NCBI GenBank assembly: GCA_902536515.1
Contig: CACAXU010000003.1
Location: forward strand, 1-64,000
Length of the DNA stretch: 64,000 nucleotides
Direction of reading: 5' to 3'
Source of the DNA: an uncultured Litorivicinus sp.
GTDB taxonomy: Bacteria > Pseudomonadota > Gammaproteobacteria > Pseudomonadales > Litorivicinaceae
Shown here: piece by piece, positions 49,987 through 64,000 of the stretch
Layout of the letters: the number at the start of each line of letters is the position of its first letter
How positions within the stretch are numbered: the stretch's first letter is position 1
Notes under the pieces: model-generated
Seen by the model: the letters and a program-made list of their open reading frames with translations, nothing else
Databases searched by the model: none
Told to the model about the DNA's origin: nothing
Made by a program: the position numbers and the translations under genes

Positions 49987-50004
49987 AAATATAAACTGTC
50001 ACGG

Positions 50005-50640
50005 ATGGGTATGACGGATTCACTCAGCCTCAAGGCCCGAAAAAAAACTGAAGAATTCATCTTGCAGGGCATTTTAAAAGCCGGAGATAAGATCACAGAG
50101 CGCGATCTTGCAGAGCGTCTTGGTATGTCCAGGGCGCCTGTTCGCGAAGCGATCCGAGAACTCATAGCGGTTGGACTTCTAGAACAAATCAGTGCCCGGC
50201 AAATTGTTGTGCGTCAGTTACTGTTATCCGAGGTGAAAGAAATCTTCTCAATCCGAGCGATGCTGGAAGGCAAAGCAGCTGCTGCGGCCGCTACAAGATT
50301 CCAGACGAAAGACCTCTTGAAGCTTGAGCAACTTCACGAAGATATGAAGCGAGTTGCGAGGAGCGACGACCTTACCGATTATTTTGACCTGAATATCCAG
50401 TTCCATAAAGTCATCCATACAGTCGCGGAATCCCCTCGCTTGATGAACTTAATCGATCAAGTGATGCGCGAATCACTGGTGTTCCGAAGTCGGAGCCTAG
50501 CTGATCAAAAGAATATTCAGAAATCAATCGAAGAGCATGAGCAACTGGTCAGGGCATTCAAAGCATATGATGACGAATTGGCTTCAATCTTAATGGTTCG
50601 TCATATCGACGGCGGATTTAATCGACTCGAACTCCTGTAG
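50005..50640 (+). CDS. GntR family (FCD) transcriptional regulator
   Basis: ITERDLAERLGMSRAPVREAIRELIAVGLLEQ; start at 50005/50011 rather than track 49831. Confidence 0.9.
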   Translation: MGMTDSLSLKARKKTEEFILQGILKAGDKITERDLAERLGMSRAPVREAIRELIAVGLLEQISARQIVVRQLLLSEVKEIFSIRAMLEGKAAAAAATRFQTKDLLKLEQLHEDMKRVARSDDLTDYFDLNIQFHKVIHTVAESPRLMNLIDQVMRESLVFRSRSLADQKNIQKSIEEHEQLVRAFKAYDDELASILMVRHIDGGFNRLELL

Positions 50641-50641
50641 C

Positions 50642-51313
50642 TTATTCCAAAGTCATTCCAACGATCTCATTCTGAAAATCAATTTCAATCAGTGACTGCT
50701 GGAAAAACGTTGTGCCAAGAATGGCATCGACATTCGCGGTGTCCATTAACTGACTGAGTTCAGCGGTCGCAATCCCAAATGTTTCGGTTAATGATTGATC
50801 GCCCACAACGAGCGTGCAGGCAACTGTTTGAATCTCAAAAGTGCCAAGCATCGGATGAAAATCATGCTGTTTCCCAAGTACCTGCCCGAACACAGCAGTT
50901 TCATTACTCCTGAGGTAAGACAACCCAGCACCAGTGTCTAGAACACAGCTCAGTCGGTCCTCCCCAATCTGGCAATGAACAACAGGGGAACCCATGACAA
51001 AGGCGGTTTCATAACCGTCAATTGATACGTCGAGCCGAGCGAGAGTGTTGTTTGCAACGTCAAATCCCAACACGGCGTCAGAAAACGCATCAACTCCGAT
51101 CAATCCGACAGCATCAAATGGCAGACTGTCCTGTATTTCAGTCCAGGCATAACTGCCAAAACTCGAATTTAACTGAACCACTGAGCCCAGCATGCGGACC
51201 GGAATGTCTGGCCCTAATGATACCGGAGACCCCGTATCGATGATGAGGCATCCCTCGTCGAAATCAGCGCACAGGATACCCTCACGCACAACAACTTCGA
51301 TTGACTCTGACAC
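50642..51313 (-). CDS. Small bilobed aspartyl-protease-like protein
   Basis: Two active-site-like motifs: CLIIDTGSP and SCVLDTGAGLSYL in 223 aa. Confidence 0.65.
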   Translation of the reverse strand: MSESIEVVVREGILCADFDEGCLIIDTGSPVSLGPDIPVRMLGSVVQLNSSFGSYAWTEIQDSLPFDAVGLIGVDAFSDAVLGFDVANNTLARLDVSIDGYETAFVMGSPVVHCQIGEDRLSCVLDTGAGLSYLRSNETAVFGQVLGKQHDFHPMLGTFEIQTVACTLVVGDQSLTETFGIATAELSQLMDTANVDAILGTTFFQQSLIEIDFQNEIVGMTLE

Positions 51314-51362
51314 AAATTATCCCTCCTGCATCCGAAGCCTCAGTGTACTGCGATTCAGTCGC

Positions 51363-52178
51363 TTAATAATAGCTTCGACGATCTGTGGAAACACTGGAAG
51401 ATGACTCACTTTCCACTGTCTCAGAAATAGCCTCGTAAGTAGATGCCGCGGGCGGCTCTGAAGTGTCAACTGATTCTGGAACACTCATACTGGAAGTGTT
51501 TGAATCACCGACTACGGTCTCGGAAAAGCTTTCGCCTGACGACAAGCTGCCTGAATCAGATCCATTATCAGAGTTGTCAACAGCAGACCTACTACCTATC
51601 CAATTCACACGATCTATTTTCTGGGGAACAATTTCCTTGCCGCGAGCACGGATCAGCGCCAAAACGCGTTTCATACCGCCATGCTGACTGCGCTTGAGCG
51701 CGTCTTCGATCAACTGAACTTCGGTACCGGAAAGCGTTATGGCTTGAATCCAGTCGAACTGACGTGACGTCTGTATATCAATAATCGATGTGGAAACACC
51801 AGCTGATCGCATCGCTGGGAAGGTAACTTCAGTCGATTGGCTTTTATCGAACACATTCGTCAGTTTCAGTTTATTCAAACCAAGCCGTGGCCTGACTTGA
51901 ATAACCGTATTCCGTCGAACCTGCCCCAAATCAGTCCCGTTGAGCTCTACCAAATAAGTACTCAGTAAGCCTTGGAGATTTCTGACAGCACTTGATTGAT
52001 CTGCCGAACTATCAATAAACGCTAAGACAGCTCCGCCTCGGGTTTGAGACAACGCGTCTATGACTGACTCTTGTGAGTCGAGTCTCCGCGCACTATCAGC
52101 GTTTAATCCAGCCGACAGGATGATAGAAACAATTGCTAAACCAAACTTTATTTTTAGCACGACCCCAGGCTCTCTCAA
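51363..52178 (-). CDS. Secreted Ser-rich C-terminal protein, unknown
   Basis: N-terminal signal-like segment; Ser/Glu-rich low-complexity tail. Confidence 0.5.
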   Translation of the reverse strand: MREPGVVLKIKFGLAIVSIILSAGLNADSARRLDSQESVIDALSQTRGGAVLAFIDSSADQSSAVRNLQGLLSTYLVELNGTDLGQVRRNTVIQVRPRLGLNKLKLTNVFDKSQSTEVTFPAMRSAGVSTSIIDIQTSRQFDWIQAITLSGTEVQLIEDALKRSQHGGMKRVLALIRARGKEIVPQKIDRVNWIGSRSAVDNSDNGSDSGSLSSGESFSETVVGDSNTSSMSVPESVDTSEPPAASTYEAISETVESESSSSVSTDRRSYY

Positions 52179-52353
52179 TCGAACACATCTTCTATCGGCA
52201 AAAAACGCGCGCCCTAAAGGACTTCATTCCCTTATGGGAAGCTATTAGCCACGGCGCCGTTGAATCATAAATCCATTTAGCGCACCTCTGGGTTGGCACA
52301 AGTCACCAAGGTTGAGACATTATCAGGAGGCAAGTGCGTAGCTAATCATCCAG

Positions 52354-52566
52354 TCAATTAATCAACGCTGTCGATCCAGAAGCGAGATCCCTAATCAATC
52401 GTATCCTATCGATTTCATCTTGTGATTCAAAACGTGCGCGACTTTCGATCAGTTGATCAACTTCCGTAGCCATCCCCTCGCTGATAAGAGCCCGGCACTG
52501 TGCAAAAAGACTAATATCCAGACAATTCAGATCGCGCTCAAATTCAAGCTTTGCTAATACTGACAT
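52354..52566 (-). CDS. Small hypothetical protein
   Basis: 70 aa, RBS-like GGAG upstream of ATG. Confidence 0.4.
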   Translation of the reverse strand: MSVLAKLEFERDLNCLDISLFAQCRALISEGMATEVDQLIESRARFESQDEIDRIRLIRDLASGSTALIN

Positions 52567-53119
52567 TTTTATTCTCCGTCAAAAAAACAGCACAGATAAT
52601 GACAGCAAGAAAAATGCCAATAACCTTGGGGCAGGTATAACTCAATGACCAGTGGCAAGAGAGATAGCCCAGCATTACTCCGATACCATGTCCTAGCTAA
52701 GAAATTTAAAAAAGGTTTTCGAATTGACACAAGCTGCCAACTACCACAACCCCAACTGCAGTGAATAAAGAGACGCGCTGCGCTTTTAGCAAGGTTCAGG
52801 CATCAGTCCAAAAATCATCCTTTACCTGCAAGACGGATGGACGACTTAGACCTTGTACGGATAGAGAGCATCCCTTGGCCTCGATTGGCACCAAATACTA
52901 AGACTGGACGCTCAATCTGCGCTACACGAAGCATTGACGGCAACGACTTCGAAACGATCGTTAAATATGTCGCCGAGCAACCGGGCGCCCTTGAAAGGCC
53001 TTTTGTTGCGACAGACAGGGGGCCCGATTATGCCGGCCGATCAATACAATCTTGGAGATCATCGCCTTGCGTCTCAAAACATCATGGCTGACTGAGAAAG
53101 GGGCTCAAGTAATTTAATC

Positions 53120-53212
53120 TTACGACAAGACCATGATCACAATGACTGTGGTTGCAATAATCAGCCAATTGATCCACCAAGCCTTCGGTGGCTTGTTATC
53201 GTTACCTTGCAT
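53120..53212 (-). CDS. 30-aa single-TM microprotein candidate
   Basis: MQGNDNKPPKAWWINWLIIATTVIVIMVLS*. Confidence 0.4.
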   Translation of the reverse strand: MQGNDNKPPKAWWINWLIIATTVIVIMVLS

Positions 53213-53293
53213 GGATCACACTCTCTGTTGCTTCAGGGAACGGTAACCCCTTTGCGGGATCGAGTCCAATATCGGATACGAAACTTCAATAAA

Positions 53294-53318
53294 AAAGGCT
53301 GAGTGTGACTCAGCCTTT
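53294..53318 (-). terminator. Rho-independent terminator (minus strand)
   Basis: AAAGGCTGAGT-CAC-ACTCAGCCTTTTTT on the minus strand. Confidence 0.8.
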
Positions 53319-53630
53319 CCTGGTTTCGACTCGCCTATTTCAAGGATACACTCGGTCGCAAGCGGTCGGTCGGCCTCTGTTATCCGTTTGCCTGTCAAAA
53401 CAGACGCCCTCAGCGGGACTCTTACGGATCGCCCGGAAAGCGCTTGCCGGTTTCTCACGATGAGAAACATTTACGAAACCAAAAGTCACTATCGCAGATT
53501 TCTCGACGCATTCAATAACTCCATGGTCGAGCTCTAGTGTTGCATCTGCGTAAAAACCAACTAGGTGCTCGAGCTTACAGCGGTTCTAACCACTACTCTC
53601 AAGGTTGTTTTAACTACGAAGGGGTTCTAT

Positions 53631-54309
53631 TCAGGAAAATTCTGAAACTTCGAGCACCATATCGATTAGCTGATGGATTCGTTTGTTGTTCCCAGCGATC
53701 GCCAATCTATTTCGATCTGATTCTGCATTCAGTTTTTCAATGTGGGCTGTGTTTTCACCGACGGTTTCAACCAACCCGTCACAAATCTCCTTTAACTCAT
53801 CGATCATTTCATTCGATATTGAATATTCTTCATCGAGTACTTCCTGCATCACCCGATCATGATGAAGGTCTGTTGATGCGGCGGCTAATACAATCTCATC
53901 AGTGAAACCAGCAGAGCTACTATTAACAGCGATCATTTGTTTGTTGATCTCGACTAATGATTGATTAATTCGGATAAGACCACGGTTGATCTCTATTCTC
54001 GCTTTAAGATGCTCTATCAGTAGTTTAAGCGTCGCGAATTTCGCATGAATTTTCTTTTCCTCTTCTTCGGTCTCAATATGATTGAGCTCATTCAAACAAA
54101 TCGCCAAATGTGATTCCAGTCCTTTGGTTGCAAGATCACGAAGCGCGACGCCATTGGCTGTCGTATTAGCCAGAATATGAAAATGATTTTCTTCAACTTT
54201 TGACCGATGTAGCCCCGCTTTAGCCGTGTTTTCGCTGACTCTAGCGGACAGCTCGTAAATGAGATTCTGGATTCTCTTTAACTTTTCGATTTTTACTTCA
54301 GTACCCATA
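53631..54309 (-). CDS. Coiled-coil protein, unknown (gene 3 of cassette)
   Basis: Heptad-like Asn/Ile repeats (IEINRGLIRINQSLVEINKQMIAVN). Confidence 0.7.
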
Positions 54310-54347
54310 AATACTCCAATATAACAATCTTCGATTTGCAGTCTCAT

Positions 54348-54863
54348 CTACTTGATATTTGCACCCAAAATATTTTGAGCTAATAAAAATTCCAGAGGTG
54401 TGATGGGCTGGACCATGTATTGATCGAGATTTAAAAGTGTTCCTAATTCGTTGGCGATCTCCTGGCCTTCGGTCAGTGCAGCCTGCGCATCAATTTCCTT
54501 TTGCTGATATCGAATACCTAGTTCAAAAAATCTCGAAGCGAACTCTAGGGGGACATAGATCGTCACCGGACCGTTCACTGTAACCATTGTCTGAAAACAC
54601 GTCTCATCGTCAGCCACTGGTTGGGGGGGCGGAACTTCTCCTCCGGCAGTTGCAATCATGACTTCTTCCTCATGGCTGGCAATCGCCTTCATCGCCGCTC
54701 GAAAGATAATATCAAGCCCTGTTTTAGACCGGAGCGCGATGCGAATTCGGAGAGCTCTAAGCTCTTTTGAGTCCCCTGACGAAGCCACCGCTTTTTCAAA
54801 GCCACTCTTCGCAGTTTCTCGCTCTTTCGTCTTCCCACCATCAAACCAGCTTAACAGACCCAT
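54348..54863 (-). CDS. Uncharacterised protein (gene 2 of cassette)
   Basis: Intact ORF in same orientation, tight spacing. Confidence 0.65.
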   Translation of the reverse strand: MGLLSWFDGGKTKERETAKSGFEKAVASSGDSKELRALRIRIALRSKTGLDIIFRAAMKAIASHEEEVMIATAGGEVPPPQPVADDETCFQTMVTVNGPVTIYVPLEFASRFFELGIRYQQKEIDAQAALTEGQEIANELGTLLNLDQYMVQPITPLEFLLAQNILGANIK

Positions 54864-54876
54864 CGTTTGATCCCGC

Positions 54877-55692
54877 CTAGTACTTTGAGACTTTTTCTAA
54901 GATCACATCATGTCTTAGATCGGGGACATCGAGCCACGTCGATCCCGGAGAATCGCGCTTGACCATTGCCTGCAACAACGCACTCGTTCCTATCCAGACA
55001 ATCTCGCTTAAATCGGCAGCCTGTCTTTTCAACCCTTGAACAGCCACAGTTAACGCATACGGGTCGTTGACTAAAATAAAGTTTGGAGCGTCACTGAGCC
55101 TCAATACATTAGGATTATTTTTCGTTCGACCAAATATTGGCATCCGAATCACCCGCTGATTTGCAGCTACAAGACGTTTCGCAACGCCACCTGCTTCCTC
55201 AATTTCCTCGAGCACGACACAGAGCTCTTTATCTTCAGCATCCTTGGCGATCAATTTAGCCAACTCAACAGAGCTCCCTGGGGTTGTAGGCGTCAAAATC
55301 TCTCGTGGACTGATTTGATCTATTCCGACAAATCTAACGATCTCTGAAAATGACAGGGCTGTGTCATCATCGAGTGCGGCATACTTCAATCGATCTTTCC
55401 TCAGCTTCAATGCATTGATCAGTGACTCAAATTGCTCTAGCGCTTCAGGTGCGTAAGGGTTAGCTGCAACTACCCTCAATGGACGACTATCTTTCACATC
55501 GTCCCAGTCCGCAAATTCCCTCAAAACGGCCCGTTGACGAGCATCATTTGGCAGCTCAAGCGTACTCAGCGGACATATATCCACCTCTATCCAATAACGC
55601 TTACCATCCTTCGCCAATGCGTCAGCTAACGGATTAACCGCGTCGCCCCATGTAGCGTTGGTCACAATAAGATTGGCGTTACTAATTCCCAT
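54877..55692 (-). CDS. Uncharacterised protein, possibly uroporphyrinogen-III synthase (HemD)-like fold (gene 1 of cassette)
   Basis: LIVTNATWGDAVNPLADALAKDG... and FILVNDPYALTVAVQGLKRQ...IVWIGTSALLQAM read like a divergent HemD. Confidence 0.5.
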   Translation of the reverse strand: MGISNANLIVTNATWGDAVNPLADALAKDGKRYWIEVDICPLSTLELPNDARQRAVLREFADWDDVKDSRPLRVVAANPYAPEALEQFESLINALKLRKDRLKYAALDDDTALSFSEIVRFVGIDQISPREILTPTTPGSSVELAKLIAKDAEDKELCVVLEEIEEAGGVAKRLVAANQRVIRMPIFGRTKNNPNVLRLSDAPNFILVNDPYALTVAVQGLKRQAADLSEIVWIGTSALLQAMVKRDSPGSTWLDVPDLRHDVILEKVSKY

Positions 55693-55923
55693 GTTCTAAT
55701 CCTGTACGTCGTGTCTTAGACACTACACTGATAGATCAATAAAAGCACCCACAAAGCTGGGAGCGATCATTAGAAAACCCCGAAAATTTTCCGCTTAACC
55801 GATTGCTCGGTTTCATCCCACTGACCATAAAACACCGCAGATATCCTCAGCCGGTAGTGGTGTAATACTACCCTAGCATCGTAATATTTAGGCAAGGTGA
55901 TTAGTTAATTTACTGAGGTTTTC

Positions 55924-57018
55924 ATGAGTCTGGCACTTGTTTCTAAAATCAATATTGTTTCAATCGATTTACCGTTACAACGGCCTATCGTCTCTGCAGT
56001 CGGACGCTATGGCAAATGGCCATTCATCATTACTGAAATAACCCTCGACAATGGTATCGTTGGCAATAGTTATATTTGTCCTTACCTCGTCAACTTCACA
56101 GACTCCATCGAGCGGGTTATAAGGGAGCTGTTCAGACTCTTCGAAAATCAGCCACTCGCTCCCGCGGCATTCTATGAAGTAGGGATGCGTCGGTTAAGTT
56201 TACTTGGCCGCTCTGGAATCGCATTATATGCGCTCGCCGCCCTCGATATTGCATTTTGGGATGCGAGCGCTAAAGATGCAGACCGGCCGTTGTGTGAACA
56301 TTTAGGAGGCACTCTTGCAGGAGTGAAAGCATATAATTCTGGTGGGCTTTGGTTAATCGCACCAGAACAATTGGCTCAGGAAGCAAGAGACCTCCGGAAT
56401 GAGGGTGACTTTTCTTCGCTCAAACTCCGTTTAGGTCGGAAGACATTGGACCAAGACCTGAGAGCCATCGAGGCAGTCCGATCCCAAATGAACGCTGATG
56501 ATGATCTCTTGTGCGACTTTAACCAAGTACTGAGCTTTACTGAGGCACTTCGCCGCCTGAAAGATTTGGATAACCAAGGTCTTTACTGGTTTGAGGAGCC
56601 CATCCCCTACCATGAATTCAGAAACTACACCGAACTCCGCCAACATCTGTCGACGCCACTCATTCTCGGCGAGAACTTCCATGGAATCGACCACGCCACC
56701 CTGAGTCTAGAACTCAAATCAAGTGACGCGATCATGCCAGATCTGATGCGAATTGGTGGGGTGTCTGGATGGATCAAAACGGCAGCACTCGCAGAGGCTT
56801 ACAAAAAGCCTTTGTCCTCCCACCTCTATCACGAAGTGTCTGCGCATCTAATGCGCGTGACACCGACGGCGGATTATCTCGAATGGATGAATTGGGTTGA
56901 CCCTTTATTAGTGGAGCCCTACCGAATCAAAGACGGACATCTCGTCATCCCAGAGCGCCCAGGGGTCGGACTTCAGTTCAACCGAGATGTTATCGACAGG
57001 TACCGGGTCAAGCGTTGA
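55924..57018 (+). CDS. Mandelate racemase/muconate lactonizing enzyme (enolase superfamily)
   Basis: SLKLRLGRKTLDQDLRAIEAVR, DFNQ, WFEEPIPYH, GENF, DLMRIGGVSGW. Confidence 0.9.
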   Translation: MSLALVSKINIVSIDLPLQRPIVSAVGRYGKWPFIITEITLDNGIVGNSYICPYLVNFTDSIERVIRELFRLFENQPLAPAAFYEVGMRRLSLLGRSGIALYALAALDIAFWDASAKDADRPLCEHLGGTLAGVKAYNSGGLWLIAPEQLAQEARDLRNEGDFSSLKLRLGRKTLDQDLRAIEAVRSQMNADDDLLCDFNQVLSFTEALRRLKDLDNQGLYWFEEPIPYHEFRNYTELRQHLSTPLILGENFHGIDHATLSLELKSSDAIMPDLMRIGGVSGWIKTAALAEAYKKPLSSHLYHEVSAHLMRVTPTADYLEWMNWVDPLLVEPYRIKDGHLVIPERPGVGLQFNRDVIDRYRVKR

Positions 57019-57160
57019 AAAAGTATCGTCAAAAACACAAGATATATCGATTTCCGTGAATCATTGCGCGTCGTCCGCCGACTGTCCGCGACTCACTGGT
57101 CATTTTCCAGCAAACAAATTGATCTTGTCTTACTAAATGTTGTTCATTGATTAGTAAAAA

Positions 57161-57457
57161 TCAATGAACACCACTAGTAATTGCAGCGGGATACACTTTG
57201 TCTACCTCTTGGGCGATAAAACCCATCGAGATATATCCTCCAGTGGTTCCTGGCGCTCCGCACCGCGCATCAAGATTTTGAGCAGTTTCGTTCCGTCGAC
57301 ATGAATACACAACTAACCCATTTTCGAGTACGCCCAATTTATTGATATCGGACATCAATCGACGATCTGAACTATTACCGACCAAGATTGAATCAGATGC
57401 ATGGACGTTGCAGACCACAAGTAAGAAGAAAAACAAAGCTCTCAGCATGCTTACCAC
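57161..57457 (-). CDS. Secreted stand-alone S74 (intramolecular chaperone)-like protein
   Basis: SDRRLMSDINKLGVLENGLVVYSCRR...MGFIAQEVDKVYPAA resembles SDRRLKxxI...GFIAQEVExxxP; signal peptide. Confidence 0.65.
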   Translation of the reverse strand: MVSMLRALFFFLLVVCNVHASDSILVGNSSDRRLMSDINKLGVLENGLVVYSCRRNETAQNLDARCGAPGTTGGYISMGFIAQEVDKVYPAAITSGVH

Positions 57458-57533
57458 TATCCAATAGGCGTGACTAGCTAAGACTCATCACCAAGATCCC
57501 TGAAACATCAAGACCTGTTCAACGATGCAATTG

Positions 57534-58850
57534 TTACTTGAACCTATGTGATATCAACTGGCCGTGCAAAGCAACGACGCGGCGAAGATTCACGAGCAAC
57601 ACCCAAGTATCTTCTGGAACCAATCTGATAGGGAACTGGGTTTCTGGCTCATCCTGCGAGTGTACAGAGGTATTTCGCAATATCCGAAGGGTGTGCAGGT
57701 ATGACTTGTACCAAGCCGAAATTTTCATTCCTTTGTAGCGAGCCGAAGTCGGTAGTTTAGCAGCCAAATCCTCTATCCCTCCATGAAAGGTGCTCGGGCG
57801 TTTGCCGTAAAAGCAATAGCAAAGGTGGTTTACGAGGCCCTCTGATAGACGACCAGAAGCACTACCTATTTCTAAAGTGGTTGGATTATCTCGATTCAGA
57901 ACCGTCAGCATATTATCTATCGCAGTGATTAATTCAGCTTCATGCTGTACCAGATCGAGAATGCGAAATTGTTCTAGCTCGAGCCTAAATTCTTCAAGTA
58001 ACAGCCGCGTACTCGCTGCTTGGAGCTCCTCTTTCTCGATGGCTGCCTCGCCAATTTCCTTGAGTAAATTTCGTCTAAGCTCGTCGTCAACCTGTAGCTC
58101 TCTGTTGCCGGCTCGTGCTCGACCCAGCTGGCGCGACAACTTTTGATGAATTGTCTTGTCCCAGTAACAAATCTTTATTGTCTTAAGTTTAGGAGAATTT
58201 ACAAACCACTCTGAAACCGCGTCCATCAAATGACGTAAGAGAACATGTGGTTGGTCGAATTGCTGTGCAGCTAATGCCGACATTACCAATTGCTGATATG
58301 GTTCATATCGTCGTGTCGCAAGACAATCTGTAACCTCTTGCGCACGAATCGCTGCCAAAAGTGCAGCTAATGTATAGCTGTAGTCGTCTTGTGTCGTTTC
58401 TGGGTTCCTGGTTTGTCGAAAAGGTAGGGTATGAATACAAAAAATATTCTTTGGTGCGTCAAAAGCATCCGCTTCGGGTTTAAGACAATCAATGCGAATC
58501 AAACGCCTAAAGTCTGAACCATGCGACTCAAGCGTATGTTCCATTGTCGCGCTTGTAGCCCAAACGCTCGACCCCTGGGCTGCCTCTAGAACTGGTTTAA
58601 AGTCTTGACCGTTCAATCCAAACTTGGTTTTCAAGCTCGTCCATGCCTGCCCTATGGGTTGAGGGTAAAGACCTTGATCAACAAACTCTCGTTTTTCGTT
58701 GTAAACGTTGGAACTGATTACGACTGACGAGTCTGAATCAGCCAAGCTGGCCAAGTCGCCCCAAAATAGTTGGATTTCCTTGATTGAGCCCAGCACCTCG
58801 ATCGTTCTTGAGTATAAAAGCTGGGCCGGATTGGGAGCAGAAATAGCCAT
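57534..58850 (-). CDS. Macro-like + HEPN-like protein of the RT operon
   Basis: N-terminal EIQLFWGDLASL...VVISSNV and PYQQLVMSALAAQQFDQPHVLLRHLMDAVSEWFVNSPKLKTIKICYWDK (macro-like); C-terminal LRILRNTSVH (R-N-x3-H HEPN motif). Confidence 0.6.
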   Translation of the reverse strand: MAISAPNPAQLLYSRTIEVLGSIKEIQLFWGDLASLADSDSSVVISSNVYNEKREFVDQGLYPQPIGQAWTSLKTKFGLNGQDFKPVLEAAQGSSVWATSATMEHTLESHGSDFRRLIRIDCLKPEADAFDAPKNIFCIHTLPFRQTRNPETTQDDYSYTLAALLAAIRAQEVTDCLATRRYEPYQQLVMSALAAQQFDQPHVLLRHLMDAVSEWFVNSPKLKTIKICYWDKTIHQKLSRQLGRARAGNRELQVDDELRRNLLKEIGEAAIEKEELQAASTRLLLEEFRLELEQFRILDLVQHEAELITAIDNMLTVLNRDNPTTLEIGSASGRLSEGLVNHLCYCFYGKRPSTFHGGIEDLAAKLPTSARYKGMKISAWYKSYLHTLRILRNTSVHSQDEPETQFPIRLVPEDTWVLLVNLRRVVALHGQLISHRFK

Positions 58851-58879
58851 AAAATGAGGTGGCTCCTACATCGATCTCA

Positions 58880-59572
58880 CTATGCCGTCAGGTATCTCGC
58901 GACATCGTCCAGGCCTCGCTGATATGACTTCCGAGTTACTCGTTCATAAAATTCAACTGCGGGTAAGAATATCGCATATCCTAACCGAGGGTTAACTAAG
59001 ATCAACCTATCTAAATCATAGCCATTCTGGAAAGCTAAAAACTGATAGAGAAACAGCTGGCGGAAGTCTTGGAGCCTAAACCCGTACGCCGAGGTCTTTA
59101 CCTCGATTAATGTGTGAGTCGCGAGTATGTCTGGAGAACAAGAATTCAAAAAACCATAGCCTCTTAATCGAGGATGAAAATTAATATCCATCGCAGCGAT
59201 CTGTTCGAGAAATTGATTAAGCCGGTGACTCAAGTTAATCGAGTCTCGCAAGGTAGCAATCGAAACATTTTCAGGGCTTAACTGTTTCCCACTGATCGAA
59301 TTGATTCGATCGATTGCGCAGTGAATGGTATTCCTGTCTTCATTCTGAAGGTTCAGATCGTGCGATTTTGCTGCATGCGCGAACGAAATTTCAGCCACCA
59401 GATCGTTTAACTCTGGGCGCTCTCGATGCACGAATTTTTTCGCAAATTGACACTTAGATGCTGTGGTTTCTAGCACTGATCGGAAGTTCGCTTGATAAAT
59501 CTTTGACAGTGCTGGCCCACACTGTCTCCATAATTGCTCGTCAAATTTTGCTATATATGTTTCACTGGCCAT
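58880..59572 (-). CDS. PD-(D/E)XK nuclease-like protein of the RT operon
   Basis: CSPDILATHTLIEVKTSAYGFRLQDFRQLFLYQFLAFQ: D...ExK plus downstream Q-helix of RecB-like nucleases. Confidence 0.65.
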   Translation of the reverse strand: MASETYIAKFDEQLWRQCGPALSKIYQANFRSVLETTASKCQFAKKFVHRERPELNDLVAEISFAHAAKSHDLNLQNEDRNTIHCAIDRINSISGKQLSPENVSIATLRDSINLSHRLNQFLEQIAAMDINFHPRLRGYGFLNSCSPDILATHTLIEVKTSAYGFRLQDFRQLFLYQFLAFQNGYDLDRLILVNPRLGYAIFLPAVEFYERVTRKSYQRGLDDVARYLTA

Positions 59573-59578
59573 CACTAT

Positions 59579-61057
59579 CTAATTCAGAAGAGTCGATGGA
59601 TCCCAGACGCTCATGAGACCGAGGTCAGTCTCAATCGTCTGCTTCATTGTGGATCCTGCAATATCTGGTTTGGATCGCATCAAGTTGATGATTTCCCTTC
59701 TCACAAAGACAGAGTCTGAGTATTCCCAAAATAATTTCACAAAGAAATCACCAAATACTGGATCCAAGGTCTCTGAAAGTTCGCCGATTATTCTACATAT
59801 TTGACCAACTACGCTAGCTGGTAATTTTCGACGAGACTCGGCGAGATCCATGACCAACTTTGTAGCAAGAGTTTTAACAAGCTTGACATCCATCACAGAT
59901 TTCACAGCGATCGTAAGGCGCACCAGTTTTGGTAGTATAGGAAAGTAGTGAACGTTCGTGGCGTACCTGACCAGCAGCGGAAAGCAGACCTCAACTTCGC
60001 TTTGTGGACTGTAATGGAGAGCTGAGATATAGATTTTCAAGCTCCGAATGTCAGGCACAATCTTCTCGGTTTCTTTCTCGATCAGTTGGTTCAAATTTTC
60101 CGCAGCAGATATTTGTTTGAGCTCCTCAACCCTCGTGATGACAAGCTCCGAGTAAGGATCGAAAAAACACTCGAAAATTTTGTGGCTATGGGACTCTGAC
60201 ACTTCCGACGATCGACGCCTCATCCGGCTAGAAAGCTCAACTTTCTCTAATCGAAATTTCGCTGAATTTATCTGGAATCCAAGCCCAGAAATGACATCAA
60301 CCAGACGGTGGATAGCAAATCTAGCGTCATCTTCACTCGAAAAAAATATGCGAATGTCATCCACAAATCGACAATATCGCCAACCTTGATCAAGCACATA
60401 TTGGTCGATCTCTGAAAGAATCAATTCACCAATAACACGACTGTAATCGCCGCCAACTGGGAGTCCATACAAAGAACCTTGGACCGTCTCAAAGAAAAAT
60501 TGCATGAATATTTTATCTTTATCATCGAGGGGTAGAGATGTAGTCACTCTGTCAATGTGATGATATTTCACGGTTGCGTAAAATTGAGCGAGATCGATCG
60601 AGATCTTCCAAGGAAAATCGTCGGCCAATTCCTCCTGTTTCTTTACAAAATCTTTCCATCCTATTTCTCGATCAAACAGCCCCTCCGGCGCGGATAGATT
60701 GGGTCTATAAGAAAACACAGACTCATTCAGCGTATTGCCCCACAGCGAACTAAATCGAGCAACTAAACTAAAAGCGTGAACAGTACTGAAAATGGCAAGT
60801 AAAACAGGGAGCTGTGTCGCAATACGCGGACGGAGATCCCCTGAATAAAACGCGTCTCTAGCAATGCCCGAGTGTGACATTGCCACGCTTGAAATCGCCG
60901 ATTTTTCGATCTCAGCGATAGCTGGGGCCAATCGATCGAGGTGATCCGTCAAATAACGCAATTCAATCGCAGGCGGATAAAGATCGGTATCACCAAAAAC
61001 CAGAAGATGATTAACCGTAGTCTGAACTGCAGACGGAGTAACAAGTGGTTTAGACAT
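59579..61057 (-). CDS. Reverse transcriptase, UG/Abi-like with alpha-helical C-terminal extension
   Basis: ISIDLAQFYATVKYHHID (motif A), GLPVGGDYSRVIGELILSEID (motif B), YCRFVDDIRIFFSS (FVDD catalytic motif); ATG 61057. Confidence 0.85.
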   Translation of the reverse strand: MSKPLVTPSAVQTTVNHLLVFGDTDLYPPAIELRYLTDHLDRLAPAIAEIEKSAISSVAMSHSGIARDAFYSGDLRPRIATQLPVLLAIFSTVHAFSLVARFSSLWGNTLNESVFSYRPNLSAPEGLFDREIGWKDFVKKQEELADDFPWKISIDLAQFYATVKYHHIDRVTTSLPLDDKDKIFMQFFFETVQGSLYGLPVGGDYSRVIGELILSEIDQYVLDQGWRYCRFVDDIRIFFSSEDDARFAIHRLVDVISGLGFQINSAKFRLEKVELSSRMRRRSSEVSESHSHKIFECFFDPYSELVITRVEELKQISAAENLNQLIEKETEKIVPDIRSLKIYISALHYSPQSEVEVCFPLLVRYATNVHYFPILPKLVRLTIAVKSVMDVKLVKTLATKLVMDLAESRRKLPASVVGQICRIIGELSETLDPVFGDFFVKLFWEYSDSVFVRREIINLMRSKPDIAGSTMKQTIETDLGLMSVWDPSTLLN

Positions 61058-61433
61058 ACAGGCAGGCGGATCTTTGAATCCCATCCACCTCGACATTTCC
61101 AATATATTCGTATGTGGCCCCTGGGTCGATAAATTGTTCCCAAACAAAACGACCTTTAGAGCTGGCGACTCTCATTCCCTCGATCTGCTCGGCAGTTATA
61201 TTCGAATAAGCATACAGACGGACACCCCAGCTCTCCGCTCCCAAATATTCAATTGTCGCAAGAGGGACTGGGTCAGACTCTGGAAGAAAGGAATCTGAAA
61301 AACCAACATATAAAACTCCGCCGGCATCTGCAGGCAAGAAAAACACGACGTTACTCGACTCAACGAATTCAATGGCCTCACTGGCCACGACCTCCTCGAA
61401 CGCAATTAAGCGATCCATTTGGGTTTCCTCCAC
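61050..61433 (-). CDS. Uncharacterised 127-aa protein, translationally coupled to RT
   Basis: Stop TAA (61050-61052) overlaps RT start region (61055-61057). Confidence 0.65.
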   Translation of the reverse strand: MEETQMDRLIAFEEVVASEAIEFVESSNVVFFLPADAGGVLYVGFSDSFLPESDPVPLATIEYLGAESWGVRLYAYSNITAEQIEGMRVASSKGRFVWEQFIDPGATYEYIGNVEVDGIQRSACLYV

Positions 61434-61485
61434 ACCATCAATGCTTGTTAAAGCTATCTGAGGGCATACTGGCTCTCAAGCTTAG

Positions 61486-62076
61486 CTATGACTCTTCAAA
61501 AACAATGGCGCTCATCGACGACGATAAAATATCAGTCTCAATCTGGAACGGTTTGCTCTCCCAGCACTGAGATTCGAAAGAGAAAGATAAATCAAACTGC
61601 GTGTTGTCTCTTATCAGTGCATACGATCCTGCTCCTAAGAAGCGGATACCTGACACGAAAAAATCGTCATATTCGCTTCTAACATCCTCATACACTACAT
61701 AAGGGGTATTCCATTGCGTTAATGGGTTATTCATCCTGAGGAACTCATAAAAAACATGATCAACCTCATTAGCCCGACTGCCTCTCCAAAAATCATTGTC
61801 AGATTGCGCACCTCTTACTCGAAAGCTAGGCGTATAAGCAGTCACGAAACTCTCGTTCCCTGTTTCTTCGTCGGTGACGCAGCATTCATCAGTCTCCTCA
61901 AACCTAACCTGCATTCCCTGCAGTTCCTCAAATAATGGCCGCTGGTAATCCAGCGCTTGTGACTCTTGGGCGAGAAACTCCTCAAGGAACACATCCCAGC
62001 GCTGGTTTGGATCGCTGCAATCTTCAAAACGCATCGCTACCGGAAAAATACAGACCACCGAACAATTAAATGACAT
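61486..62076 (-). CDS. Uncharacterised 196-aa protein upstream of RT operon
   Basis: Intact ORF, same strand, 52-bp gap. Confidence 0.6.
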   Translation of the reverse strand: MSFNCSVVCIFPVAMRFEDCSDPNQRWDVFLEEFLAQESQALDYQRPLFEELQGMQVRFEETDECCVTDEETGNESFVTAYTPSFRVRGAQSDNDFWRGSRANEVDHVFYEFLRMNNPLTQWNTPYVVYEDVRSEYDDFFVSGIRFLGAGSYALIRDNTQFDLSFSFESQCWESKPFQIETDILSSSMSAIVFEES

Positions 62077-62224
62077 AGCAACTCCCCTCGTATAGCCCGA
62101 TAAGCTTTAAACCGATCTCTAAGCTGTCAGAAACTATCACCCTGCGGCGCAAAATCGCCAAGAGATATTGACCACCGTTCGAACGTACTCGTGATAGCGA
62201 CGCATGGCAAGCAGACATCGAAAG

Positions 62225-63298
62225 TTAATGAATAGACGCGCAATTTGTCCAGTAGATCCTGTCGTCTGATGTATAGAGATACCCTTGGTCCATTAGGCTT
62301 TGGTAATCACCCACGTAGTCTCGGGTCGTATCCGCCAATAACCAAATACCGTTGTCTTCAGTGAAATAGATGTAGGTTCTTGGTCCAGTATCGCGTTCCC
62401 CACTCTCGTAGAACCCGTCTAAGGCGGCGATGAATTCATCCATAAGCGAGAGATCGACACGGAACTCCGTCAAAAGATGCCACTCGTTATCGGTATTGCT
62501 GATCAAACGCATCCGGTTCTCGATACCGACCGCAGAAAACAGGGACGCTATCAGTACCGCTTGGTCGTCACAGTCTCCGCCTCTCGTATCAAGGGTCTCA
62601 ACTGGAGGTGCCACATAATCCCCATCAACCGTTTCACCTTCACTCATGTGGCTCGGGTCCGGGACATAGGTAACATTTTTCTTCACATACTCAAATAATG
62701 CGGCGGCTCTTCGCAAGACCGCCGGCTCATTTTCTTGATGAACGCTGGCAATGTTGACTGCCAGTGCCCGGACAGAGCTTGGATCTACCAAGGCCCTATA
62801 GTCGACCGGTCCCTCGAGTGCTGAACGGATCGGGCCGTTTACTTGCGTACGACCCTTGGAGTACTTCTCGATTAGGTGGTCAGTCTGATGCGCTCCTGCG
62901 GGTGTCTCCACTTGTGTCCGTTCTGGGCCTTTATTCGTAGACCAGAAAGCCGTCAGATGGGTAATAGCAGTGATATGCGCCAAATCGACAAGGCTCTCCG
63001 GTGCCGTCCAAACCCAGTTGGAGTCAAAAATAATCGCTATAATCGGACGGTACAGCGCTTCAAACACATAATTGTTGAATTGCCACGGGTCTGACTCACC
63101 GAAAGTTACGTTATAAGCGATCACCGCTAGCGCCCATAAGCACGGCCAGATGAAACAGATGATGAGTAGTTTTGGGACCCAGGAAGTAAGTTTCTTGAAC
63201 GAAACCAGCACCCAAACAATCAAGAGGTTCCAGGCGACAAGGGCCCAGAAATAGAGCGGGTCAGCAAAAAATGGGGCCGCTTCCACAGCAATCCACAT
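62225..63298 (-). CDS. Membrane protein with transglutaminase-like domain
   Basis: N-terminal TM segments; GGDCDDQAVL (Cys), NEWHLLTEF (His), WLLADTT (Asp). Confidence 0.75.
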   Translation of the reverse strand: MWIAVEAAPFFADPLYFWALVAWNLLIVWVLVSFKKLTSWVPKLLIICFIWPCLWALAVIAYNVTFGESDPWQFNNYVFEALYRPIIAIIFDSNWVWTAPESLVDLAHITAITHLTAFWSTNKGPERTQVETPAGAHQTDHLIEKYSKGRTQVNGPIRSALEGPVDYRALVDPSSVRALAVNIASVHQENEPAVLRRAAALFEYVKKNVTYVPDPSHMSEGETVDGDYVAPPVETLDTRGGDCDDQAVLIASLFSAVGIENRMRLISNTDNEWHLLTEFRVDLSLMDEFIAALDGFYESGERDTGPRTYIYFTEDNGIWLLADTTRDYVGDYQSLMDQGYLYTSDDRIYWTNCASIH

Positions 63299-63329
63299 GC
63301 ATCAAATATCTGAAACTACTCAATCTCGA

Positions 63330-64000
63330 TTACCCTTTATCTCCCAAGGAAATACACTTCTCTATGAACTTCAGTGATGCGTCAATCACGGCCTCACTGT
63401 ACCCGTCGCTGCTGATAGGGGCTTTGATTTTATTTGCCGGAGGACTAAGTTCGTTAATCACCTTATCTTCGATGAACCGTTGCACGAGTCTCCGCCTACC
63501 CAACCGATCTCCGCCTCTCGAGTAAAGAAATTGAGAAAGTGCATCTTGATCCGAAGCTTCATTGATTCGGATGTATTGAAATGAGAATCGATTTGAGATG
63601 CCCGCAGCATCTAGCTCGCTAAATTCCTCCCAACGATCGTTTGCGACCTTAACCCTATTTTCAAAAGTCGAGCATCGACCATCCCCCAGAAGATGTTGCA
63701 ACCTCGATTTGTCATCGTTACTTGTTATGGAAAGAAGACTCACGCCAACGTTCTGAAAAAATTTTTCGTTACCCATAACTGGCAGGTAAACCTTTTTAAA
63801 TTGATTTTTGTTGCGCTCCAAAAGGCGGCCAACTTCTTTCAAATTACGATCGGCTAGAAGGTCACCTAGTTTTGGATCTTTTTTTGCCGATAAGTTCGTA
63901 AAATTAGTCTCTTTGAATCGGCATGTGATGCTGGCTAAGTGTGTCCACCAACGGTCTCGAGCAACTCCAGAAGAGCCACAATAAGACCCTGCATAAAGTA
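63330..64000 (-). CDS. Uncharacterised protein, 5' part beyond window
   Basis: Frame stays open upstream of the track start (63842) to the window edge: LYAGSYCGSSGVARDRWWTHLASITCRFKETNFTNLSAKKDPKLGDLLADRNLKEVG... Confidence 0.6.
   Translation of the reverse strand, partial: LYAGSYCGSSGVARDRWWTHLASITCRFKETNFTNLSAKKDPKLGDLLADRNLKEVGRLLERNKNQFKKVYLPVMGNEKFFQNVGVSLLSITSNDDKSRLQHLLGDGRCSTFENRVKVANDRWEEFSELDAAGISNRFSFQYIRINEASDQDALSQFLYSRGGDRLGRRRLVQRFIEDKVINELSPPANKIKAPISSDGYSEAVIDASLKFIEKCISLGDKG

What the first reader, a model, noticed from the sequence alone, without database searches (positions are those of the whole stretch)
57534..61057. Reverse transcriptase + PD-(D/E)XK nuclease + macro-like/HEPN protein in one operon
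Seen: three same-strand genes, tightly spaced (RT stop and nuclease start within 10 nt; nuclease to third gene 29 nt). The RT has UG/Abi-like motifs (FVDD, GLPVGGDxSR) and a long helical C-terminus instead of a retron or group II maturase layout. Gene 2 has D...IEVKT nuclease residues; gene 3 has RNTSVH (HEPN RxxxxH) behind a macro-like domain. Knowledge: UG/Abi RTs are linked to phage defence (DRT, AbiA/AbiK/AbiP2), and HEPN, macro and PD-(D/E)XK are recurrent effector/sensor domains. Inference: a multi-gene RT-based abortive-infection system. I cannot say from sequence alone whether this exact composition is already catalogued.
Basis: partly seen in the sequence, partly recalled or inferred. 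Interest (0 to 1): 0.88.

Follow-up and report, generated by a model that had tools for sequence, protein, structure and literature searches.

The report
Divergent DRT8 defence operon, extra gene
A bacterium known here only as an incomplete small-genome assembly carries a strongly diverged copy of DRT8, a little-understood two-gene anti-phage system (a reverse transcriptase plus a DNA-cutting enzyme), with a third gene attached, a macro-domain/HEPN-like protein not seen next to any of the related copies examined.

Summary
In detail: three coding genes on the minus strand, 3 and 29 nt apart. The first two are a known pair: the RT's best PADLOC family is Drt8 (203.6 bits), the nuclease's is RTasPDDEXK (127.9 bits). 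Of 71 RT loci collected from GTDB genomes by RT motifs alone, 65 carry this nuclease next to the RT; five of the other six end at a contig edge. The nuclease active-site residues are invariant in 66 of 66 copies, and its model resembles Cas4/Dna2/RecB-type nucleases. So this is a DRT8-type system, but an outlier: 12 other Drt8-type RTs scored 387-555 bits. The third protein belongs to a rare macro-like + DUF4145/HEPN-like family: two remote relatives found, neither beside an RT (one in a Pycsar-like operon), none in about 75 DRT8 loci. The operon lies in an accessory island that starts where homology to sister genomes ends. Its three-part composition rests on this one locus. DRT8's mechanism is published as unresolved. 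Verdict: new variant of a known kind; role of gene 3 inferred, not shown.

The parts
59579..61057 (-). Drt8-type reverse transcriptase, 492 aa (P0001); motif A D155xxxFY, GLPVGGDYSR 198-207, FVDD 231-234
   Evidence: RVT_1 9.7e-12; PADLOC Drt8 1.9e-60; catalytic residues invariant against canonical DRT8 RTs
58880..59575 (-). RT-associated PD-(D/E)XK nuclease, Cas4/RecB-like (P0002, 231 aa): E62, D149, E158, K160, Q173xxxY177
   Evidence: RTasPDDEXK 1.1e-37; catalytic residues 66/66; AF2 pLDDT 81.7; Foldseek top hits ACE1 (Cas4 family), Dna2, Cas4, AdnAB, RecBCD
57534..58850 (-). Third gene (P0003, 438 aa): macro-like N-terminal part, DUF4145/HEPN-like C-terminal part with R389-x3-N393-x-S395-x-H397
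   Evidence: DUF4145 weak; relatives L120 and P0004; PARP14 macrodomain the top PDB hit of the family profile
61050..61433 (-). Possible extra upstream gene (127 aa), overlaps the RT start by 8 nt; weak KTSC-domain hit; membership of the operon uncertain
   Evidence: coding by codon usage; no shared upstream gene in canonical DRT8
57018..64000 (.). Accessory island (continues to contig end, 79062): nucleotide homology to sister genomes ends at about 57010

Best explanation
This is a strongly diverged DRT8-type (RT + Cas4/RecB-like PD-(D/E)XK nuclease) anti-phage operon with an appended macro-like/HEPN-like protein, carried on an accessory island. Shown: the RT-nuclease pair is an evolutionarily fixed unit with intact RT and nuclease active sites, and the third gene is co-oriented and 29 nt away. 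Inferred: the RT makes DNA without an adjacent RNA template, in the manner of Abi/class-1 RTs, when phage infection changes the cell. The nuclease acts on DNA ends, either trimming or destroying the RT's single-stranded product (a built-in brake) or attacking DNA once the RT licenses it. The macro/HEPN-like protein is a lineage-specific effector or regulator that couples this to growth arrest, for example by binding a nucleotide-type ligand through the macro-like part and acting on RNA or a partner through the HEPN-like part.
For: PADLOC assignment of genes 1 and 2 to one system. 65 of 71 RT loci selected only by RT motifs have the nuclease next door, and five of the six exceptions are cut by a contig end. 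Pairs in the window's own order (L152, L153) and on plasmids (L007, L008, L010, L156) keep RT then nuclease, often overlapping. Nuclease catalytic residues and QxxxY invariant, with a Cas4/Dna2/RecB-like model. RT tree: uniting the window RT with the PDDEXK-linked RTs is not rejected, AU p = 0.337 and 0.334. No conserved sequence in the 500 nt flanking DRT8 pairs: 0 of 364 comparisons upstream at 60-80% RT identity against 364 of 364 for RT coding sequence, which argues against an adjacent conserved ncRNA. The locus lies in an accessory region absent from that site in sister genomes. A relative of gene 3 lies in an operon with a Pycsar effector and a cyclase gene. Literature: class 1 DRTs synthesise untemplated DNA (PMC13174585, PMC12632851); host nucleases hold DRT3 and DRT9 products in check (PMC13174585); DRT8 gives phage resistance but its mechanism is unresolved (PMC13314766, PMC13213688).
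Against: The window RT is a very long branch whose position is unresolved in the second tree and it scores about half or less of what other Drt8-type RTs do. Whether DRT8 RTs are class 1 was not tested directly; a ncRNA conserved in structure but not in sequence, or a distant one, would be missed. Gene 3 has no second occurrence beside a DRT8 RT, so its place in the system rests on spacing alone. Its single-sequence structure prediction failed (pLDDT 32.5), and its HEPN catalytic motif is doubtful. No phage assay.
Confidence: 0.6

Rival explanations
1. An ordinary two-gene DRT8 (diverged), followed by chance by an unrelated gene of the same accessory island; gene 3 is an independent defence or other protein.
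For: Canonical DRT8 has no recurrent third gene: of 27 same-strand downstream neighbours scanned, only YidB recurs, in 2; no P0003 relative in any DRT8 locus; P0003 relatives occur without an RT. Several other genes of the island lie on the same strand.
Against: 29-nt gap, same strand, and gene 3 is of a family that elsewhere sits in a defence-type operon.
Confidence: 0.4
2. Nuclease as guard: the RT continuously makes toxic single-stranded DNA, the Cas4/RecB-like nuclease removes it, and a phage nuclease inhibitor or end-binding protein releases the toxicity (toxin-antitoxin logic), with gene 3 as a further safety or effector part. This is a more specific version of the best explanation.
For: Fixed RT-nuclease pairing; exonuclease-like fold; DRT3 is synthetically lethal with loss of RecBCD and DRT9 with loss of ExoI (PMC13174585).
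Against: No biochemical data; the nuclease could equally be the effector. The Foldseek matches have low TM-scores.
Confidence: 0.4
3. Templated (class 2-like) RT with a ncRNA encoded elsewhere or diverging too fast to see by sequence.
For: Several DRTs need a ncRNA (DRT2, DRT3, DRT9, DRT10; PMC12632851, PMC13174585). The 515 nt downstream of gene 3 hold only a 98-aa ORF and could carry an RNA.
Against: No flanking conservation among DRT8 pairs; no Rfam match in 50000-64000; in the window the RT start is overlapped by a coding ORF.
Confidence: 0.2

Closest known systems
DRT8 (PADLOC Drt8 + RTasPDDEXK; probably UG7, from memory, not checked)
   Same: RT followed directly by a PD-(D/E)XK nuclease; RT and nuclease catalytic residues; profile hits to both models
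   Different: Window RT scores 203.6 bits against 387-555 for 12 other Drt8-type RTs, and its match ends at profile position 445 of 493; nuclease 127.9 against 180-243 bits; a third macro/HEPN-like gene not present in other DRT8 loci
Drt8-type RTs without RTasPDDEXK (plasmid loci L009, L011, L012; genomes L115, L117)
   Same: Same PADLOC RT family (387-534 bits)
   Different: No RTasPDDEXK next to the RT; the window has it
AbiA (RT with C-terminal HEPN domain)
   Same: RT linked with a HEPN-type domain in a phage-defence gene (PMC3710099)
   Different: Here the HEPN-like domain is on a separate macro-like protein; the RT is Drt8-type, not AbiA
Macro-like + DUF4145 proteins (Priestia WP_289579007.1, L120)
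   Same: Same two-part architecture and R-x3-N-x-S-x-H signature
   Different: Not linked to an RT; the Priestia copy lies in a Pycsar-like operon

Membership tests
DRT8 | RT of the Drt8 family | tested here: met
   Best PADLOC family Drt8, 203.6 bits, E 1.9e-60, next best RT_UG19 74.7 bits; weak compared with 387-555 bits of others; tree position deep and unresolved
DRT8 | Adjacent co-oriented RT-associated PD-(D/E)XK nuclease | tested here: met
   RTasPDDEXK E 1.1e-37, 3 nt downstream of the RT; D149/E158/K160/Q173/Y177 invariant in 66/66
DRT8 | Anti-phage activity | not testable with these tools
   Reported for the DRT8 family (PMC13314766); not for this copy
Class 1 UG/Abi RT (untemplated, protein-primed) | No associated ncRNA; template-free synthesis | tested here: inconclusive
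   No sequence conservation in the flanks of DRT8 pairs, no Rfam hit; synthesis itself cannot be tested
Retron / group II intron RT | Retron msr-msd RNA or maturase-type RT family | tested here: not met
   NCBIfam retron and group II models far below cut-off (27.6 vs 235; 36.8 vs 300 bits); no Rfam hit
HEPN RNase | Conserved Rx4-6H catalytic motif | tested here: inconclusive
   R392-x4-H397 present in P0003 but R392 is Gly in L120 and P0004; conserved R389-x7-H397; DUF4145 hits below the curated cut-off
Macro domain | Macro fold and ADP-ribose-binding loops | tested here: inconclusive
   Family profile hits PARP14 macrodomain in two collinear segments, whole-sequence E 0.0026; glycine-rich loop poorly kept; no usable structure model

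The most novel reading that the evidence does not exclude
A three-component DRT8 subtype in which a macro-domain/HEPN-like protein, shared as a module with cyclic-nucleotide (Pycsar-like) defence operons, is the effector or regulator controlled by DNA made by the RT and trimmed by the Cas4/RecB-like nuclease.
Probability: 0.35. Interest if true: 0.65.

Novelty: new variant of a known kind. Interest (0 to 1): 0.45.

Why it matters
DRT8 is one of the few named DRT types whose mechanism is published as unresolved. The data here narrow it: the RT-nuclease pair is nearly obligate, the nuclease is of the Cas4/RecB/Dna2 type with an invariant active site, and no conserved flanking RNA is visible. That makes a testable case for untemplated DNA synthesis coupled to a dedicated DNA-end nuclease. 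The window's extra macro/HEPN-like gene, if it belongs, would be a new link between RT-based and nucleotide-signalling defence.

Tried and rejected
Scans for P0003 relatives in GTDB genome contigs, viral contigs, phages, plasmids and genus relatives found none. A whole-genome search of 392 order members gave one convincing remote relative (L120); a phylum search with the family profile found nothing more. Two other weak hits were not accepted: L121 has stops in frame, L122 shows no protein of this architecture. AlphaFold2 of P0003 without an alignment was useless. First-look relatives of the RT in sampled genomes (L086-L118) proved to be other RTs or Drt8 RTs without this nuclease. A DUF3644 gene (overlapping a HEPN family according to PMC3710099) 106 nt downstream of the DRT8 pair in L062 looked like a second RT-nuclease-HEPN case but is a single occurrence of a different family. 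Considered and rejected: retron, group II maturase. Promoter and terminator scans were no better than shuffles. The original UG/Abi survey (10.1093/nar/gkac467) was not available, so UG numbering and class of DRT8 rest on memory.

Full report
OBSERVATION. The three ORFs are real. They lie on the minus strand at 61057-59579 (RT, 492 aa), 59575-58880 (nuclease, 231 aa) and 58850-57534 (third protein, 438 aa), with gaps of 3 and 29 nt. Each scores best in its annotated frame by the codon usage of the window's core genes. A further coding ORF of 127 aa (61433-61050, weak KTSC hit) overlaps the RT start by 8 nt, so the transcript may start further upstream. Promoter and terminator scans were no better than shuffled sequence and settle nothing.

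GENES 1 AND 2 ARE A KNOWN PAIR. PADLOC assigns the RT to Drt8 (203.6 bits, E 1.9e-60; next best family 74.7 bits) and the nuclease to RTasPDDEXK (127.9 bits, E 1.1e-37). NCBIfam retron and group II models are far below their cut-offs. To see whether the pairing is general I searched GTDB genomes with an alignment of RTs only: 71 loci encode RT relatives. In 65 of them the PD-(D/E)XK gene lies immediately downstream on the same strand; of the six others five are cut by the contig end and one RT is truncated. Two further pairs in genomes of the window's own order (L152, L153) and plasmid copies (L007, L008, L010, L156) agree.

THE WINDOW COPY IS AN OUTLIER. Against the PADLOC models, 12 other Drt8-type RTs score 387-555 bits and four other nucleases 180-243 bits; the window copies score 203.6 and 127.9. 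The RT is 23-25% identical to its relatives. In a maximum-likelihood tree it is a very long branch inside the Drt8 superclade (support 87/87) but outside the tight PDDEXK-linked clade (99/100). With other outgroups its place is unresolved. Holding it together with the PDDEXK-linked RTs is not rejected (AU p = 0.337 and 0.334).

NUCLEASE. In an alignment of 66 copies D149, E158, K160, Q173 and Y177 (window numbering) are invariant and E62 is kept in 64. That is a D-ExK core with the QxxxY motif typical of RecB/Cas4-type exonucleases (own knowledge). An AlphaFold2 model from a 51-row alignment (mean pLDDT 81.7) has as its best PDB matches Argonaute-associated Cas4-family proteins (E 3e-4), then Dna2, Cas4, AdnAB, MGME1 and RecBCD. 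TM-scores are low (about 0.25-0.43), so this is a family-level likeness.

THIRD PROTEIN. It has no close relative in GTDB contigs, viral contigs, phages, plasmids or 58 related genomes. One whole-genome hit (L120) and, through it, a Priestia plasmid protein (P0004) are remote relatives. All three have a weak DUF4145 match (HEPN clan; E 0.016, 7.6e-4, 3.3e-3). A profile of the three finds PARP14 macrodomains as its best PDB matches, in two segments that lie in the right order and towards the two ends of the macro fold (whole-sequence E 0.0026). The catalytic claim is weaker: the R of RNTSVH (R392) is Gly in both relatives, and the conserved residues are R389, N393, S395 and H397. Single-sequence structure prediction failed. 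The Priestia relative lies in an operon with a Pycsar effector and a cyclase gene, so the family also occurs in nucleotide-signalling defence operons.

IS GENE 3 PART OF THE SYSTEM? Only orientation and spacing say so. No P0003 relative occurs in any DRT8 locus collected. The genes downstream of canonical pairs are miscellaneous: 27 same-strand neighbours, only YidB recurring (2). One locus (L062) has a DUF3644 gene, a Pfam family that overlaps a HEPN family according to PMC3710099, 106 nt downstream.

CONTEXT. The flank to 57010 is conserved in sister genomes at 82-87% nucleotide identity, and the homology stops there; the operon and everything to the contig end (79062) are missing at that site in those genomes. 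The locus is thus accessory, as expected of a defence island, though no tRNA was found in the window and no integrase was noticed at the boundary.

MECHANISM. Literature held here says that class 1 DRTs make untemplated DNA and class 2 DRTs copy a ncRNA (PMC13174585, PMC12632851), that host nucleases restrain the products of DRT3 and DRT9 (PMC13174585), and that DRT8 protects against phage but is mechanistically unresolved (PMC13314766, PMC13213688; read). I found no conserved sequence in the 500 nt on either side of DRT8 pairs: 0 of 364 upstream and 2 of 352 downstream comparisons at 60-80% RT identity, against 364 of 364 for RT coding sequence. No Rfam family matches the region. This favours an untemplated RT but cannot exclude an RNA conserved only in structure. 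My best model: phage-triggered, untemplated DNA synthesis by the RT; a dedicated Cas4/RecB-like nuclease that trims, removes or uses that DNA; and here, possibly, a macro/HEPN-like effector or regulator. The pairing and active sites are shown; substrate, trigger and the role of gene 3 are inferred.

VERDICT. The finding is real and is very probably a defence operon, but its core is the catalogued DRT8 pair. What is new is the depth of divergence and the attached macro/HEPN-like gene, seen once. New variant of a known kind; interest 0.45.

Noticed in passing
window 57010-64000 and contig to 79062: Sharp end of synteny with sister genomes at 57010; the rest of the contig is an accessory island with a DUF2779 protein, TPR proteins, a transglutaminase-like membrane protein and several unknown same-strand genes.
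   Followed up: partly
window 57161-57457 (-): 98-aa ORF with a secretion-signal-like start and a Peptidase_S74 (endosialidase chaperone) match, E 6.9e-5, just downstream of the operon; looks like a fragment.
   Followed up: no
L145:2197-6823 (Priestia aryabhattai plasmid NZ_CP128553.1): Pycsar-like operon with two macro-like proteins (one with a DUF4145/HEPN-like end), a cyclase and a RyR-domain protein; a candidate expanded Pycsar-type system.
   Followed up: partly
L053:3291-4811 and L045:8371-9876: A second, very similar pair of UG-type RTs lies close to the DRT8 pair in two distantly related bacteria (Oceanospirillaceae MAG and Pontivivens insulae).
   Followed up: no
L062:8439-9635 (Thalassotalea sp.): DUF3644 (HEPN-related) gene 106 nt downstream of a canonical DRT8 pair.
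   Followed up: partly
L115:5622-7766: A Drt8-type RT without RTasPDDEXK followed by a PD-Lambda-3_A family gene (PADLOC E 3.4e-51), possibly a second kind of RT pairing.
   Followed up: no
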